The position numbers were made by a program, and so were the translations under genes. The notes beneath the pieces are model-generated. The model made no database searches. It saw only the letters and a program-made list of their open reading frames with translations, and was not told the DNA's origin. 60,357 nt of DNA from a virus: IMG/VR virus record IMGVR_UViG_3300044568_001950, positions 1 through 60,357 of that record. One strand, written 5' to 3'. Position 1 is the stretch's first letter. Every line of letters begins with the position of its first letter. Shown one piece after another: positions 14,440 through 55,079 of this stretch.

Positions 14440-14898
14440 TTGTCAGATTTAGATCCAATTATTGGTACTGCAAAGGCAGCAACAAAGAGCATTAAGTCTG
14501 CCATTGAGTCGGGCAGAGAGGTAAGTTCGGCAATAGAATCTATTCAGAATTTTGGAATGGCGGAAGTCAAAGCCCGCCACGCTTTTAAGACGGTACGTAA
14601 AAGTCAAGAAGGTGAGATAACAATCATGACCGCTATGGCGGAGTGGCGCAGGCTAGATCAAATACGCCGCATGGAGTTGGAAGTAAAGGACTTTCTGATC
14701 CAGCAGTTTGGGCACTTTAAGGGTGAAGAAGAGTTCGAGAAGATCAAGAAGATTAAAGAAGACATGATAGCTCGCCATACTAAAAATAAGGATGAGCTAG
14801 GTCGGGACGTCAAGAAGTTGCGAGAGTTGCAGATTATTTGTGTGATATTGGCGTTTATGGTTGTCACTATTTATTACATCATGAAGGGTCATCTGTAA
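14440..14898 (+). CDS. Tail-anchored helical protein of the lysis region
   Basis: 152 residues starting at TTG 14440, with AAGGACAGGGG at the right distance and no ATG available in frame. The chain is highly charged and helical (about 20-125), then one C-terminal membrane segment (about 130-148, IICVILAFMVVTIYYIM). TAATG overlap with the next gene. The layout suits a holin regulator or spanin-like factor, but no family is recognised. Confidence 0.65.
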   Translation: MSDLDPIIGTAKAATKSIKSAIESGREVSSAIESIQNFGMAEVKARHAFKTVRKSQEGEITIMTAMAEWRRLDQIRRMELEVKDFLIQQFGHFKGEEEFEKIKKIKEDMIARHTKNKDELGRDVKKLRELQIICVILAFMVVTIYYIMKGHL

Positions 14899-15515
14899 TG
14901 GCTGAGGAAAAACTAAACGCTAATGACACGCTCTCTAAGGTGCTGGCGTACGTTGACTCGCCGTTTAAACTTATTGCCCTGATCCTCATGGCGGTGCTGG
15001 CCTTCGGTGGCTGGATGCTGTACGACAACAAAGACTTAATTGTAGGCACCTACAAAGAACATCAAAAGTTGCCGGACATCGTAGAAGACCGAGTTGAGGA
15101 CGCTGTAGCCCACTTATTTAAAACCACGGGTGCGACTACCGTGGCAGTGTTTAAAGTAAACCCCCTTCTGGGAACCCGAGTGCAATATCGGGCCTATACC
15201 AAAGAGGGCAGAGACAAGACGAACGATGGGCTAGACGTAGGACTCTTTACGGCCAACCAAGCCAACAATCAGGACGTAGTTAACCTCATGGCAGGCAACG
15301 TTCCGTGTAGCGATTACAAGGCAGCGCAGTCTGAGATTGGCCTGTGGTACATCGAAAAGGGTATGCGGTTTGGATGCAGGATCAGTATCCCGCCCGAGCC
15401 CAGTAGGTTCATAGGACAGATTACCGTGGGTTGGGATAAGCCCCCCGCTGATTTAGACCAGACCAGGGCGATGCTCAATATCGCCGCAACCATGCTTTCA
15501 AGGAGTAAGAAATAA
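14898..15515 (+). CDS. Signal-anchored periplasmic protein of the lysis region
   Basis: 205 residues from ATG 14898 (TAATG overlap), preferred to an upstream codon at 14838 that lies inside the previous gene. One membrane segment (about 22-41) is followed by a 160-residue soluble domain with two Cys near residues 133 and 156, probably in the periplasm. The alternating pattern TTVAVFKVN...RVQYRAYTKEG recalls a GAF-like sensor fold, uncertain. Its position just before the holin suggests a role in lysis timing. Confidence 0.65.
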   Translation: MAEEKLNANDTLSKVLAYVDSPFKLIALILMAVLAFGGWMLYDNKDLIVGTYKEHQKLPDIVEDRVEDAVAHLFKTTGATTVAVFKVNPLLGTRVQYRAYTKEGRDKTNDGLDVGLFTANQANNQDVVNLMAGNVPCSDYKAAQSEIGLWYIEKGMRFGCRISIPPEPSRFIGQITVGWDKPPADLDQTRAMLNIAATMLSRSKK

Positions 15516-41349: not shown

Positions 41350-41967
41350 ATGGCTAAGTCCAATTTGAAAGTCGTTAGTGATGTAACCAATGGCGGCAAG
41401 AGCGCCATTGAACAGGGTTTCCCTTATGCTGTAGCTGTACGGGCTCAAGGCGCGGCGGATCTGTTGTTCCACCGTTGGAACTGCGAGTCAGTCGATGCGA
41501 AGTCCAAGGCCGCCAAGAACTCAGCGGCCAAGAAGACAGATGACATCGAGTCCTACGTTTGGAGAAACGAAAAAGATGAACTCTGTATCCCAGGGGAGTA
41601 TTTTAGGCAGTCCATTATCCATGCTGCGAAATTTAAGCAAGACCCCCGTTCTCCGCGTAAATCCGCGATGGATCTCTTCAAAGCCGGGGTCGTTTCACTT
41701 ACTCAGTTGGCGTCACTTGGTAGCGATGAGTGGGACTACCTTGACACTCGTCGGGTCACAGTACAGCGAGCCGGAGTTAATCGAACAAGACCTGCCATGC
41801 GCATCGGATGGGAAGTGGATATACAGTTTCAAATACTCACCCCTGAGTATATCGACCCCCACCTTTTTCAAGACGTACTGAACACGGCAGGCCGCCTCGT
41901 AGGCGTTGGAGACTTCCGCCCAACGTACGGACGTTTTAACATCACAAACTTTGAGGTGCTCTCATGA
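41350..41967 (+). CDS. Unknown protein with GVGDFRPTYGRF end
   Basis: 205 residues from ATG 41350 (TATAGGAGAAAG upstream). Contains LCIPGEYFRQSIIHAAKFKQ, then SPRKSAMDLFKAGVV, and ends RLVGVGDFRPTYGRFNITNF. I know this as a phage protein of unknown function; the Gly-rich GxGDFRPxxGRF end resembles RAMP/Cas7-type RNA-binding proteins, a loose similarity only. It is the gene controlled by the GGYNN leader. ATGA overlap with the next gene. Confidence 0.75.
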   Translation: MAKSNLKVVSDVTNGGKSAIEQGFPYAVAVRAQGAADLLFHRWNCESVDAKSKAAKNSAAKKTDDIESYVWRNEKDELCIPGEYFRQSIIHAAKFKQDPRSPRKSAMDLFKAGVVSLTQLASLGSDEWDYLDTRRVTVQRAGVNRTRPAMRIGWEVDIQFQILTPEYIDPHLFQDVLNTAGRLVGVGDFRPTYGRFNITNFEVLS

Positions 41968-42386
41968 TTAAAAAGCCTGCCAAGAAAGCGAAAGGTAAGC
42001 CCCTATCCCGTACGGTAAAGCGTACGCAAAAAAGTGCGGTTAAGAAGGCGAAAGGTAAGCCCCTATCCCGTACGGTAAAGCGTACGGTCAAGAAGGAGAA
42101 ACTTACGCCGCTGGCCCAGCTCGTTGCAAAGTGGGACAAGGACCAAGGGCCACTGCCCAGTCTTTACGACACGGCCACCCAGCTTGATGACGTGGTCACC
42201 ACGCTCACCAATATCCAGCACCTGATGGACTCCGCCCTGAATGACTGCGTGGACCTCACCAACAACGACCGCGCGCTTTCCTTACTCTACCTTGCGCACG
42301 GGATGGTTAAGGGAGTGATCGATAAGACCGACCCGCTAATCTCGGACCTTTACCGCATCAACCGGGCCACGTTGGACCTAAAGTAA
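41964..42386 (+). CDS. Protein with basic tandem repeat N-terminus
   Basis: 140 residues. Residues about 6-42 are a duplicated Lys-rich unit (KKAKGKPLSRTVKRT twice, 20 residues apart) followed by VKKEK, then a helical acidic-neutral domain. The basic arm resembles histone H1-like nucleic-acid-binding tails. It may act with the 41350 protein, to which it is ATGA-coupled. Ends tail to tail with the HslV-like gene, overlapping 9 bases. Confidence 0.7.
   Translation: MIKKPAKKAKGKPLSRTVKRTQKSAVKKAKGKPLSRTVKRTVKKEKLTPLAQLVAKWDKDQGPLPSLYDTATQLDDVVTTLTNIQHLMDSALNDCVDLTNNDRALSLLYLAHGMVKGVIDKTDPLISDLYRINRATLDLK
41982..42086 (+). repeat. 45-bp direct repeat, 60-bp period, within the 41964 gene
   Basis: 41982-42026 and 42042-42086 differ by one base. 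Near-identity at the DNA level, including synonymous positions, indicates a recent duplication. Confidence 0.9.
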
Positions 42387-42842
42387 GGATTTTTTCTTAC
42401 GCTTTGGAGCCGGGTGTAATGGCTCCAGGGACATACAGTCGATAGGACCGCCCGTAAGGGGGTCGTAGAGGGACGCAATCTCTATGGCCTCCTTGGGGCT
42501 CTTGCCCAAGTGCAAGGCCGCTATGGCGTATCCTGAGCCAGTCCCGATGGCATAGAAGTCGTTTTTGATCCTCGCAGGGATCAAAGTGCTCTCGTAGACC
42601 CAAATCCCGTCCCGCCGAAGCTCCAACATCTCGATATCACAGTCCTCATCCAACTCGTCGCCCTCTTTGGGGTGCTCGAGCATGCTAAAGGCCCCCAAGA
42701 TATCCTTCCAGTCGCCCGCCGCCCCGTAGATCGATTCTCGGCCCCTACGGAGCTTTTCCACAAAGTACTTGATGTCATCCCCACTGACTTGAGAGTCGGC
42801 GGCAATCTCGAGCGTTGAGAACCTGGCGGCGATCGTGGTCAT
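42378..42842 (-). CDS. HslV/proteasome-like Ntn hydrolase
   Basis: 154 residues from ATG 42842 (GGAAGAG upstream); an upstream in-frame start at 42926 lies inside the HNH gene. The N-terminus MTTIAARFSTLEIAADSQVS aligns with HslV: Thr2 would be the catalytic Thr1 after Met removal, Asp16 matches HslV Asp17 and Lys30 in VEKLRR matches Lys33 in VKKVRR. AAGDWKDI and FYAIGTGSGYAIAALHLGKS match the HslV glycine regions. It is shorter than HslV (about 175) and no HslU-type ATPase is present, so it may use host HslU or act alone. Coupled to the HNH gene by 4 bases. Confidence 0.75.
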   Translation of the reverse strand: MTTIAARFSTLEIAADSQVSGDDIKYFVEKLRRGRESIYGAAGDWKDILGAFSMLEHPKEGDELDEDCDIEMLELRRDGIWVYESTLIPARIKNDFYAIGTGSGYAIAALHLGKSPKEAIEIASLYDPLTGGPIDCMSLEPLHPAPKRKKKSLL

Positions 42843-43222
42843 AGCTCTTCCTTTTGCATGCTCCTGTTGTACGCCCGAATGGCCTGATGTTCGTTGAAAT
42901 GCTCTATCCGATGGCAGTTGGCACACAAGACCTCACACTTCTTGACTTCCTCGTACGCCTGCGAAAAGCAGTTGTCCATCACCAACCGATTCACGTCCTT
43001 CTTGGTCCCGTCCCGCGTGGGGTGGTGGAAGTCAATAATCGCCGGGTGCGACGCACCACAACGCGAACAAACTAGAGTGCTCTTATATTCCAACCACTTG
43101 GCACGGTTCTTTCTGCGTAAAGCATTCACCGCGTCTTGAATGACACGCTTATTGTTCTCGTAGTACTTCTTTCCGTATTCACGGTTCTTAACCCGCCTGA
43201 CCTCAGGATCCTTGTACGGCAT
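42839..43222 (-). CDS. HNH endonuclease
   Basis: 127 residues from ATG 43222 (GGGGAGT upstream); a longer form from 43273 lacks a ribosome site. A basic helical N-terminus (MPYKDPEVRRVKNREYGKKY) precedes the HNH core: CSRCG, IIDFHHP, then CEVLCANCHRIEH, with two CxxC zinc pairs and the HH/H catalytic residues. It could be a homing nuclease or a packaging/defence nuclease; placement beside the HslV-like gene rather than the terminase suggests the former or an early role. Confidence 0.85.
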   Translation of the reverse strand: MPYKDPEVRRVKNREYGKKYYENNKRVIQDAVNALRRKNRAKWLEYKSTLVCSRCGASHPAIIDFHHPTRDGTKKDVNRLVMDNCFSQAYEEVKKCEVLCANCHRIEHFNEHQAIRAYNRSMQKEEL

Positions 43223-43288
43223 GACACTCCCCATTGAATTGGTGTGGGGGACTTGGATAACCCCAATCGTCAAAAAAGGGCGCCCCCA

Positions 43289-43323
43289 CAGGGTTATCGT
43301 ACCCTGAGTGCATGAAACGTCAA
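43289..43323 (-). promoter_or_regulatory. Candidate leftward promoter with palindrome over the -10
   Basis: On the minus strand TTGACG (43323-43318), 16 bases and TACGAT (43301-43296). The -10 lies in the palindrome CAGGGT-N6-ACCCTG (43289-43306), a possible operator. It would serve the HNH/HslV-like operon. Confidence 0.5.
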
Positions 43324-43324
43324 T

Positions 43325-43356
43325 GAGTTACCCGTCATACCCATGAGAGGTAACTC
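43325..43356. promoter_or_regulatory. Inverted repeat GAGTTACC/GGTAACTC
   Basis: Perfect 8-bp arms (43325-43332 and 43349-43356) separated by 16 bases, between the leftward promoter and the AT-rich region. Spacing suits a two-site operator or an RNA hairpin. Confidence 0.45.
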
Positions 43357-43443
43357 GGTGGGTGGTTAGGGGATCAAGTGTCGCGGACCATGGACCATGG
43401 ACCACGGGCCAAGATTACGAAGCCACCATACTGTAGGATTTCT

Positions 43444-43672
43444 AGAAATTTTTTTACTACACGTTTTTTTTCAGTCACTTTTAGACGTAATGAACGTAAT
43501 TTTAGCTATAAGTTATTGATTTATATAAGGAATTAGCATTACGTTAAGCATTACGTTAAAGTATTACTTTAAGTCTAGACGTAATGTTATATAGGATTCT
43601 GTAGCTAAAAAGAGACTCTACGTGCCTTACGTCCGGAAAATGTTGGTAAAAATGTGTAGTGAAAAAATTTCT
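43444..43672. other. Iteron region inside a 19-bp inverted repeat (origin candidate)
   Basis: AGAAATTTTTTTACTACAC (43444-43462) and its near-exact inverse (43654-43672, 18 of 19) enclose 191 AT-rich bases. Inside are ACGTAAT at 43485, 43494 and 43579, and a perfect tandem copy of GCATTACGTTAA (43536-43547, 43548-43559) followed by a degenerate third. Repeated short sites in both orientations, AT-rich DNA and flanking inverted repeats resemble iteron origins or multi-site operators. The Cro-like protein at 43781 might bind the sites. The 558 bases 43223-43780 carry no gene. Confidence 0.6.
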
Positions 43673-43730
43673 GGAAAAAATAACGTATAGGGCGTGTTGC
43701 TCTGTAAGGGGGCTAAAACCCAGAAATACG

Positions 43731-43759
43731 TTGACAAAATACACCAGTGGAGATAATAT
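43731..43759 (+). promoter_or_regulatory. Near-consensus sigma70 promoter
   Basis: TTGACA (43731-43736), exactly 17 bases, TAATAT (43754-43759); about 7 bases on starts the leader ending in AAGGAGAAAAACC before ATG 43781. The strongest host-type promoter in the genome by eye, suggesting immediate-early expression. Confidence 0.85.
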
Positions 43760-43780
43760 AAACAAAGAAGGAGAAAAACC

Positions 43781-44047
43781 ATGACAATGAAGATCATTCC
43801 CGAGATGTACGACCAGCTACCAAGCAATCCGGTGGAGATGCTGGTGATCTCGTTTGGTAGCCAGGAAGACATCGCGGCGTACTGTTCGGTGTCCCCACAG
43901 GCTGTTTGGAACTGGAAGGACCGCAACTCCATCCCTCGAGGGTATGTGAAGGACCTAAGCCGGTTCACAGGCATCCCCCAATGGATGCTCTGCCCCAAGC
44001 ACTTTGATAAACCGGAAGACGAAGGGAGTACGGATGCTGGTGTTTAG
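43781..44047 (+). CDS. Cro/YdaS-like helix-turn-helix regulator
   Basis: 88 residues. The HTH is SQEDIAAYCSVSPQAVWNWK (about 27-46), followed by IPRGYVKDLSRFTGIPQ, the usual layout of Cro/YdaS proteins. First gene behind the strongest early promoter and next to the iteron region, so it may repress its own operon or the leftward one. The next gene overlaps it by 14 bases. Confidence 0.75.
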   Translation: MTMKIIPEMYDQLPSNPVEMLVISFGSQEDIAAYCSVSPQAVWNWKDRNSIPRGYVKDLSRFTGIPQWMLCPKHFDKPEDEGSTDAGV

Positions 44048-51893: not shown

Positions 51894-54800
51894 ATGGCAC
51901 AACAAAGTAGCCCGGACGTCGATCAGATTCTATCTACTATTCGTCAGGTAGAGTCTAGCAACAACTATGGTGCGCAGGCAAAGGGTTCGTCGGCCTCGGG
52001 CGCGTATCAGTTTATTGATAGTACGTGGCAGGCTTCGACAAAGAAAGCTGGTTTAGGGACCGAGTACTCAAGGGCCAAGGACGCTCCTCCTGAGGTGCAA
52101 GACGCGGTGGCCGCGTTTGCTGTTCGGGACATCTTGAATCGCACGGGCAATGACGTGTCGAAGGTGCCGCTGGTGTGGTATACGGGCAACCCTGAGGGTC
52201 GGATGACCGAGGACGCTCTTCGCGCAAACCAGGGCCTGACTGCGGATAAGTATCAGCAGAAGTGGCTGTCTGTGTTGGGTGGCGGGGCTCCTGCACAAAC
52301 GGCTCAGGCTCCACGGACCACGGCCCAAGGACCAAAGCAGGCAGGCGCTCGTGTGGCGGCTGCTTTTAACCCCAGAGATTTGCCGAGTAGTTATACGTCG
52401 GCGTTGGCGTTGAATTATTTGGCTGACACGGACCCTGAGGGTGTGACCATGAGCAAGGTCAACGAGATGTTGACCGAGATGATGGAAGATGGTGGCGGTG
52501 CGGCAAAGCCTGCTGGGGGCAAGATCCTGCAGCAGTTCGCACAGGCAAAAAGTGCTGATCCGTTCCAGTTTGTTTTGCAGCAAGAAGAGCCTAAGCGTCG
52601 TGCGGTGCCGAGAATGCCAAAGATGTTTGCTGAGGGTGGTGAAGTTGGTGAGCAATACGAGTCCTTAGAGGACGTTATGGCCGCTGCTCCCACGCAGGAT
52701 GAAGAGCAAAGACAGTGGGAGCAGGAGATTCCTGTTCGAGAATTGACACGTCAGTTAAATGAGACAGTGGACAGGTATCGTGCGGGCAGGGCTTCGGAAG
52801 AGGACGTAAAACAGTTTTTTCCGAACTATAGTGATTACGACATTGCTAATATGTTTGGCATGACAGATGCTGGCCAAAGCGGTCCAAGGCCCGAGATCAC
52901 TGCTCAGCCCTTCTTGACTCCTGAAGTATACGATCGAGCCATGAACCGGGGGCGGATGGAACAGTACAATATTGAGCGTGAGATCCGCGAAAAGAGCCCA
53001 AACCAGTATCCGTACAAAAGGGATTTCACTCTTGGGCTGCAGCAGTTTGCTGACGGTGGCGAAGTAGACTACAACCAGATGGCAGAGCAGATGACTGTTG
53101 GAACACTGCCCACGGACCAACGACCAGCCGGTGAAGTGTTTCGGGGGATTGGGCAAGATATCGTGCGTGGAGCGCAGTATTTGCCGTATGACTTAGCGGG
53201 TGCTCCGGTGGACATTGCCACGATGGCGATGAGGCCGTTTGGGTACAACGTCGAGAAACCTGTGGGTGGCAGTGAGTATCTGATTGAGAAAGCTCGGCAG
53301 GCTGGGATTGCCCAGGCACCCACGGGTTCGACTGCAGAAACTGCAACCCGCATCGGTATGGGATTCGTGAACCCTGCGGCAGGAGCAAGGCAGATAGGTC
53401 GTGGGATTGAAGGACTTACAGATGTAGTTACGGCGCCGATTGATCGCGCAAAAATCCGAGCAGCAGCCTCTCGTGCCCCAGAAGATGTTACCTATGACCC
53501 TCTAAGAGAACGGCTAGAGTCGCAAGGAATTTTGTCCTTGGCTACACGCCCGGGCGGAAGTGTTATGTTTGGTGACGAAACCTCACGTAATCTCCTTAAG
53601 CTGCATTTAGATCAGCAACGCTTGGATGAATACGCCCAAGGTGAAATGCCAAAAGCAGGGGCTGAGTTTAGCAATTCGTTTTTAAACTATTTGCCAAAAA
53701 TAGATAAATATATGCAGTTGCAGTATTCAACACCAAATGATCCTTTGCTCATTGCAACTGTAGAAGGCAGATTTAAACCAAAACCTTTTTTGCGCCCCAA
53801 TGATATTTTTAGTTATGACCGAAAAGAAATTTCAAGAATAACTGAAATTCCCTTACAAGACGAAACAAAATTAACTCCTGCCCATGTGAACAAACTTTTA
53901 GAGTTGTCTAAAGCTGGTAATGAAAAAGCTCAAAAAATGGTATTTAGTGGTGCTAATAGGGCTATGTCTTCTTCCGGACGCATAACCCCGCTGCAAATAG
54001 TAGATAGACTAAAAAACACAGAATTTTTTGATGAAGTAAATGCCAATCTTAAAAGTGCTGTTGAAAGTACTTTTTGGAAAGAACTAGGAAAAGAAGAAGA
54101 TATAGTCCCTTTAATGAAAAAATATATTAATCAAAAAGCAATCTCCAATAATGAAGAAGAACAAAAAGCGTTTAACACACTAGAATTTAGAGTTTCGACT
54201 ATCCTAGAAAAAAAAGCGGACGCAGAAAAAGAACTTCAAGCTAAAAACTCTTTGTTTGGTAAATATCCAACCTCAATAAATCTAGTGCGTGATCCAAGGG
54301 AACTTAATGAGGCAATAGAAAATATTCCGGCTATAGCGGAAGAAATTAAAAGAGGAAAACCCGTTTACCAACCTACAAATACTTGGAATTCTCCGTTCAG
54401 AACAGAAGACATATTTGAGTACATGTCAGAAAATGATCCGGCCAAGTGGTCAAAGATGTCTGTCCCAGAATTAATTATTGCATCTTCGGCCAAAGATCCT
54501 GCCTCCGTTACAAGCCCCACAAAAATTGCTAGGATGGCAGATGATGGAGATCCACTAACTGCGGATCAATTAAGAACAGGTACTCAAAGATATATGCCCG
54601 TTAATTCTCCCACTTTGGGGGAAGGCGCCGAATGGCGAGAAATAACTACCAAAGAGGGGCTACGGATTGAGGGTGGGGTGTTACAACATTGCTTAAAAAG
54701 AGAAACAAGCGGTTATTGCAATCGCCTTTTAAACAAAGAGTCTAAATACTTTACTCTACGAGATGCCGATGGGCAGCCTTATGTAAGTATCGAACTTGCA

Positions 54801-55079
54801 AAACCTATCGGCAGAGAAAAAGAAGATGTTCCGTACAGCGTAATTAAACAAGTCAAGGGCTTTAGAAATACTAATACTATTCCTTTATACGGGGAAGAAG
54901 TCTCAGACTTTTTGATGGATTGGCAGAAAAAGTCTGGTGTTAAATTGAGTCCAACGGAAGATAACGATTTTCTTCCTCAAAAATTTAAGCAAAAGACTTC
55001 TTTTGGAATAGAAGCTCCTCCAGAAAATTTTCGCAAGGGCGGCATGGTAGATAAACCTTTATATGATCGGGCAGTGTGA
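51894..55079 (+). CDS. Virion transglycosylase with PcfJ-like C-terminal region
   Basis: 1061 residues. N-terminal SLT domain: IRQVESSNNYGAQAKG (catalytic Glu about 19), SASGAYQFIDSTWQ and VPLVWYTGN. Central part: Pro/Gln-rich linkers with MFAEGGEVGE and FADGGEVDYN. C-terminal about 300 residues: WREITTKEGLRIEGGVLQHC (His932-Cys933), then KYFTLRDADGQPYVSIELAK and YSVIKQVKGFRNTN, resembling the PcfJ pattern of mobile-element proteins. From about 53600 to 55078 the DNA is clearly more A/T- and Lys-rich than its neighbours, suggesting acquisition. Ends FRKGGMVDKPLYDRAV. Probably a packaged and ejected cell-wall-degrading protein. Confidence 0.7.
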   Translation: MAQQSSPDVDQILSTIRQVESSNNYGAQAKGSSASGAYQFIDSTWQASTKKAGLGTEYSRAKDAPPEVQDAVAAFAVRDILNRTGNDVSKVPLVWYTGNPEGRMTEDALRANQGLTADKYQQKWLSVLGGGAPAQTAQAPRTTAQGPKQAGARVAAAFNPRDLPSSYTSALALNYLADTDPEGVTMSKVNEMLTEMMEDGGGAAKPAGGKILQQFAQAKSADPFQFVLQQEEPKRRAVPRMPKMFAEGGEVGEQYESLEDVMAAAPTQDEEQRQWEQEIPVRELTRQLNETVDRYRAGRASEEDVKQFFPNYSDYDIANMFGMTDAGQSGPRPEITAQPFLTPEVYDRAMNRGRMEQYNIEREIREKSPNQYPYKRDFTLGLQQFADGGEVDYNQMAEQMTVGTLPTDQRPAGEVFRGIGQDIVRGAQYLPYDLAGAPVDIATMAMRPFGYNVEKPVGGSEYLIEKARQAGIAQAPTGSTAETATRIGMGFVNPAAGARQIGRGIEGLTDVVTAPIDRAKIRAAASRAPEDVTYDPLRERLESQGILSLATRPGGSVMFGDETSRNLLKLHLDQQRLDEYAQGEMPKAGAEFSNSFLNYLPKIDKYMQLQYSTPNDPLLIATVEGRFKPKPFLRPNDIFSYDRKEISRITEIPLQDETKLTPAHVNKLLELSKAGNEKAQKMVFSGANRAMSSSGRITPLQIVDRLKNTEFFDEVNANLKSAVESTFWKELGKEEDIVPLMKKYINQKAISNNEEEQKAFNTLEFRVSTILEKKADAEKELQAKNSLFGKYPTSINLVRDPRELNEAIENIPAIAEEIKRGKPVYQPTNTWNSPFRTEDIFEYMSENDPAKWSKMSVPELIIASSAKDPASVTSPTKIARMADDGDPLTADQLRTGTQRYMPVNSPTLGEGAEWREITTKEGLRIEGGVLQHCLKRETSGYCNRLLNKESKYFTLRDADGQPYVSIELAKPIGREKEDVPYSVIKQVKGFRNTNTIPLYGEEVSDFLMDWQKKSGVKLSPTEDNDFLPQKFKQKTSFGIEAPPENFRKGGMVDKPLYDRAV

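What the first reader, a model, noticed from the sequence alone, without database searches (positions are those of the whole stretch)
42378..42842. HslV/proteasome-like peptidase encoded by a phage, with intact Thr-Asp-Lys triad
The N-terminus TTIAA, the ADSQ Asp and the VEKLRR Lys align one to one with HslV Thr1, Asp17 and Lys33, and the AIGTGSGYA segment matches the HslV glycine turn. No ATPase partner is encoded. It is the second gene of a leftward operon with an HNH nuclease. It could hijack host HslU, or process virion or host proteins.
Basis: partly seen in the sequence, partly recalled or inferred. Interest (0 to 1): 0.7.

Follow-up and report, generated by a model that had tools for sequence, protein, structure and literature searches.

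The report
Phage proteasome-like peptidase, PPH family
This phage gene encodes a small relative of the bacterial proteasome-like protease HslV with its cutting residues intact, but it belongs to a phage family (PPH) that was described in 2021 and whose job is still unknown.

Summary
Window 42378-42842 (-) encodes a 154-aa protein that is a proteasome-type Ntn hydrolase. It matches PHROG 1040 'peptidase HslV family' (E 6e-30). A profile of its relatives matches HslV in the PDB (E 5e-12). Its AlphaFold model (pLDDT 90) aligns to E. coli HslV over 141 residues (Z 19.7). Thr1, Asp17 and Lys33 map to T2, D16 and K30. Across 94 distinct relatives these are T in 93 (S in one), D in 94 and K in 93. 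Purifying selection is strong. No AAA+ unfoldase was found in the 60-kb record.

The protein lacks helix H2 of HslV, scores 10.6 bits against an HslV cut-off of 137, and sits beside no hslU. [quoted passage not shown] Hundreds of GenBank phages carry relatives. HslU hijacking has no support.

New here is context. In the window's clade PPH always follows an HNH gene. In the sister clade it sits in or beside the lysis cassette and overlaps a metallophosphoesterase gene in 69 of 74 loci. Verdict: new member of a known, uncharacterised family.

The parts
42378..42842 (-). PPH-family proteasome-like N-terminal threonine hydrolase, 154 aa (nucleophile Thr = residue 2, Asp 16, Lys 30, oxyanion Gly 40)
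   Evidence: phrog_1040 E 6.1e-30; PDB profile E 5e-12; AF2 pLDDT 89.7 and Z 19.7 to HslV; triad conserved in 94 sequences
42839..43222 (-). HNH endonuclease gene, 127 aa from the ATG at 43222, directly upstream with a 4-nt overlap
   Evidence: phrog_3106 E 8e-21 and phrog_2255 E 1e-17; present directly upstream of PPH in 13 distinct related records
43223..43780 (.). AT-rich divergent intergenic region with 12-nt direct repeats (43535-43571); probable control region for the leftward HNH-PPH operon and the rightward YdaS-like gene (inferred)
   Evidence: repeats; promoter-like sites no more frequent than in shuffles
41964..42386 (+). Convergent Lys-rich gene of unknown function (140 aa), overlaps the 3' end of the PPH gene
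   Evidence: ORF; no Pfam match; weak phrog_397 E 0.2; conserved neighbour in the window's clade

Best explanation
The gene encodes a member of PPH, the phage branch of proteasome-like Ntn hydrolases. Shown: fold, conserved active site, absence of helix H2, absence of a propeptide. Inferred: host methionine aminopeptidase removes Met1 and exposes Thr1; Thr1, with Asp and Lys, then cleaves peptide bonds without a dedicated unfoldase, in an oligomer that need not be the HslV double ring. It most likely acts as an accessory (moron-like) peptidase during infection, on small, unfolded or specific host or phage polypeptides. The gene is found at different sites in different phages, here as a two-gene cassette with an HNH endonuclease.
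For: phrog_1040 E 6e-30. Profile to HslV, BPH and proteasome in the PDB, E down to 5e-12. AF2 pLDDT 89.7; Foldseek best hit HslV E 4e-9; Z 19.7 over 141 residues. T2, D16, K30 conserved in 94 distinct proteins. MTT directly at the start in nearly all relatives, so no propeptide; Thr or Ser at position 2 allows Met removal (established specificity of methionine aminopeptidase). Only three helices in the model, 45-56, 103-111 and 116-126, and HslV residues 69-81 fall in an insertion relative to the PPH profile. dN far below dS. No AAA+ unfoldase in the record. Varied genomic sites. The published PPH description matches.
Against: No biochemical test of any PPH was found in the held library. Published work notes that isolated proteasome subunits are inactive outside the complex, and oligomeric state was not tested. 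The conserved HNH and phosphoesterase neighbours could point to a specific partner rather than a general accessory peptidase. Direct assignment to PPH by the authors' own alignments could not be run.
Confidence: 0.6

Rival explanations
1. It replaces or joins host HslV and uses host HslU as its unfoldase.
For: HslV is among the nearest solved relatives; no own ATPase in the record.
Against: It lacks helix H2; HslV equivalog score 10.6 against a cut-off of 137; no hslU linkage in any locus inspected. The PPH authors found no co-occurring AAA+ partner and note that HslU uses a distinct interface.
Confidence: 0.08
2. It is a specific processing enzyme or protein ligase (like connectase) acting on one partner, for example a product encoded beside it, working as a monomer or small oligomer.
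For: The neighbour is fixed within clades: HNH overlapping in the window clade, metallophosphoesterase overlapping in 69 of 74 sister loci. H2 is lost; connectase, a monomeric ligase, also lacks the first helix pair.
Against: The neighbour differs between clades and lineages, so no single partner is conserved; no cleavage motif was sought or found.
Confidence: 0.2
3. It serves a late function, either lysis or head maturation.
For: It lies beside holin or endolysin genes in Guernseyvirinae, about 1-3 kb from an endolysin or lysozyme gene in several myoviruses and in or beside the lysis cassette of the sister clade; it lies among head or packaging genes in phiM5 and Gungnir39.
Against: In other phages it lies among early or unassigned genes and in the window it is on the opposite strand in a separate operon. 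In phiM5 the neighbouring portal, scaffold and capsid proteins carry a virion-proteome note and the peptidase does not.
Confidence: 0.1
4. It is a degenerate, inactive HslV-like remnant.
For: It is shortened relative to HslV.
Against: Triad conserved in 94 distinct proteins and dN far below dS.
Confidence: 0.02

Closest known systems
[quoted passage not shown]
   Same: About 140-aa core, HslV-like fold without helix H2, Thr/Asp/Lys active site, no propeptide, in tailed phages, no AAA+ partner
   Different: Nothing tested separates it; acidic H1-to-strand loop and a basic C-terminal tail are its own details
PHROG 1040 'peptidase HslV family'
   Same: Direct profile match over residues 1-150, E 6.1e-30
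   Different: The profile (277 positions) is longer than this protein; some relatives carry a C-terminal extension
HslV (ClpQ)
   Same: Fold, triad, Gly oxyanion position, GSG turn
   Different: No H2, no hslU, far below the HslV equivalog cut-off
BPH (beta-proteobacterial proteasome homolog)
   Same: Fold; C-terminal FD..(S/T)..PID motif like PPH in the profile alignment
   Different: BPH keeps H2 and a long acidic pore loop; this protein has only a short acidic loop
Phage DSL-LC04 'ATP-dependent protease' (OR003939.1)
   Same: 65.6% identical, same HNH-PPH cassette and flanking genes
   Different: None that matters; 150 against 154 aa

Membership tests
PPH | Proteasome-like Ntn fold | tested here: met
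   AF2 pLDDT 89.7; Foldseek E 4e-9; Z 19.7
PPH | Thr1/Asp17/Lys33 catalytic residues | tested here: met
   T2, D16, K30 aligned to HslV and conserved in 94 proteins
PPH | Helix H2 absent, H1, H3 and H4 present | tested here: met
   Model helices 45-56, 103-111, 116-126 only; HslV 69-81 is an insertion against the PPH profile
PPH | About 140 residues, no C-terminal extra domain (which would suggest RPC) | tested here: met
   154 aa with a short low-confidence basic tail
PPH | No propeptide | tested here: met
   MTT at the start in relatives
PPH | Falls in the PPH cluster of the authors' sequence map | not testable with these tools
HslV | Passes the curated HslV equivalog cut-off (137 bits) | tested here: not met
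   10.6 bits
HslV | Two helix pairs H1-H4 | tested here: not met
   H2 missing
HslV | Encoded with the unfoldase HslU | tested here: not met
   No AAA_2 match in the record; AAA match only a helicase P-loop below cut-off
HslV | Two-ring dodecamer, HslU-dependent activity | not testable with these tools
   Only monomer prediction available
BPH | H2 plus long acidic pore loop | tested here: not met
   H2 missing; loop 57-69 short, though acidic

The most novel reading that the evidence does not exclude
PPH is not a general compartmental protease but a dedicated processing enzyme or ligase that works outside a double ring on a partner fixed within each phage clade (HNH nuclease here, an HTH-metallophosphoesterase in the sister clade), which would be a new way of working for a proteasome-fold enzyme in phages.
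Probability: 0.15. Interest if true: 0.7.

Novelty: new member of a known kind. Interest (0 to 1): 0.3.

Why it matters
Proteasome-fold proteins in phages are widespread (318 of 50,697 GenBank phage records match at E up to 0.01; 639 at E up to 1), yet the literature searched holds no functional study. This member is compact and clearly intact. Its fixed neighbours within clades give concrete candidates for a substrate or co-factor, which the 2021 survey said were lacking. Otherwise it adds one more sequence to a described family.

Tried and rejected
Single-sequence searches of Pfam and the PDB found nothing; relatives were needed to see the homology. The profile scan of genome contigs found no relative (peptide patterns came from close relatives only, so no proof of absence). 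PADLOC gave no match for the peptidase and a marginal one for HNH. I looked for a universal genomic partner: lysis genes recur in several lineages, but head, early and unassigned sites occur too, so lysis was not adopted. The idea that the HNH-PPH cassette is a clean recent insertion was not established: related records show gradual or patchy divergence across it, not a sharp junction, and no empty site was found in a close relative. WaterT-type Microbacterium proteins have an insertion where H2 lies and may be AAH rather than PPH. Terminator and promoter scans were uninformative. Paper searches for a functional study found none.

Full report
What is there. Window 42378-42842 on the minus strand is an ORF of 154 codons. 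The longest mechanical ORF runs from a GTG at 42926, but nearly all relatives start at the MTT that corresponds to the ATG at 42842, including those with an unrelated gene upstream. The ATG overlaps the stop of the upstream HNH gene by 4 nt and follows a GGAAGAG. The downstream end overlaps a convergent plus-strand gene. The record is a 60,357-base IMG/VR viral contig with terminase, portal, primase, helicase and DNA polymerase genes and a lysis cassette with an M15 endolysin and a 3TM holin.

Homology. A single-sequence scan finds PHROG 1040 'peptidase HslV family' at E 6.1e-30, nothing in Pfam and nothing in the PDB. Relatives came from IMG/VR and GenBank phages. A profile of 34 diverse relatives (22-95% identical to the query) hits 214 PDB sequences; the 60 shown are all HslV, BPH or proteasome beta, best E 5e-12. 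Ten of 28 diverse members match Pfam Proteasome on their own, best E 3.9e-9.

Fold. AlphaFold2 on that alignment gives mean pLDDT 89.7 and pTM 0.82. Foldseek's best solved match is HslV, E 4e-9; VIA-align gives Z 19.7, 2.4 A over 141 residues, to E. coli HslV, with residue 2 as the first aligned residue against HslV residue 1. Many viral proteins in BFVD share the fold.

Active site. By profile alignment T2, D16, K30 and G40 correspond to HslV Thr1, Asp17, Lys33 and Gly45. In 94 distinct relatives position 2 is T in 93 and S in one (a Caulobacter phage), D16 is D in 94, K30 is K in 93 (the exception has a Lys next to it and is probably misaligned), and G100, G102, A106 and D127 are invariant. 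Pairwise dN is 0 to 0.12 where dS is 0.13 to 1.6. This is a gene kept for an intact active site. There is no propeptide; the small second residue should let host methionine aminopeptidase expose the nucleophile (established specificity; inferred here).

What it is not. HslV has four main helices; the model has three, and HslV residues 69-81, helix H2, fall in an insertion relative to the PPH profile. In its place is a short acidic loop, residues 57-69 (HPKEGDELDEDCD). It scores 10.6 bits against the HslV equivalog cut-off of 137. The record has no AAA_2 match, and its only AAA match is sub-threshold in a helicase gene.

Known family. Fuchs, Alva and Lupas (PMC8665760; [quoted passage not shown] Every PPH feature that could be tested is met. 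Hence 'new member of a known kind'. No functional study was found in the held library, which lacks most subscription journals and all preprints.

Context. In 13 distinct records of the window's clade the gene directly upstream is the HNH endonuclease and the flanking genes are largely the same. In the sister clade PPH lies in or beside the lysis cassette, mostly after a holin-like or other small membrane-protein gene, and overlaps a gene for an HTH-bearing calcineurin-like metallophosphoesterase (Pfam Metallophos; phrog_221 E 5.5e-27); the phosphoesterase is found in 69 of 74 loci, and in three of the five others the contig stops just after PPH (loci are partly redundant). In the window the homologue of one sister-clade neighbour (14440-14898) is followed directly by the gene that in the sister L058 comes after PPH, phosphoesterase and a small membrane protein, so the gene occupies two different sites in related phages. 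Elsewhere it lies by holin and endolysin, between terminase and portal, among head genes, beside a HicA toxin gene and terminase, or as gene 1 of a terminal repeat. This spread fits an accessory gene rather than a fixed structural one.

How it most likely works. Shown: predicted fold, conserved active site, selection, missing H2, no unfoldase in the record. Inferred: ATP-independent Thr1-dependent cleavage of small, unfolded or specific polypeptides during infection, in an oligomer of unknown form. Not supported: HslU hijacking. Open: a clade-specific partner.

Limits. Oligomeric state, activity and host are unknown. The genomic contexts of GenBank phages were sampled, not exhaustive. PPH membership rests on features described in the paper, not on the authors' own profiles. 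The HTH in the phosphoesterase is read from sequence by eye, not from a library match.

Noticed in passing
L058:7579-8517 (+) and equivalents in L009-L012 and L022-L090: A calcineurin-like metallophosphoesterase gene (with an apparent N-terminal HTH) overlaps the 3' end of PPH in 69 of 74 sister-clade loci; a genomic pairing not mentioned in the sections of the PPH paper read here.
   Followed up: partly
window 14440-15515: Homologue of the sister-clade gene upstream of PPH, here directly followed by the gene that lies beyond PPH-phosphoesterase-TM in L058; the PPH segment is absent at this site and PPH lies at 42378-42842 instead.
   Followed up: partly
window 51894-55079 (+): 1061-aa protein between large terminase and portal genes with a weak N-terminal transglycosylase-like match (PF06737 E 5.5e-5, below cut-off).
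   Followed up: no
window 43223-43780: AT-rich divergent intergenic region with three tandem 12-nt repeats (AGCATTACGTTA) and a 41-nt imperfect inverted repeat; possible operator or origin, next to a YdaS/Cro-like regulator gene at 43781-44047.
   Followed up: partly
window 41964-42386 (+): Lys-rich protein with an internal repeat (KKAKGKPLSRTVKRT twice), convergent with PPH.
   Followed up: no
L093:63-500 (Caulobacter phage C1): PPH relative with Ser in place of Thr at the nucleophile position, first gene of the terminal repeat.
   Followed up: no
window 41350-41967 (+): Protein of unknown function (phrog_4652) found in at least 80 IMG/VR contigs, most without PPH within about 6 kb.
   Followed up: partly
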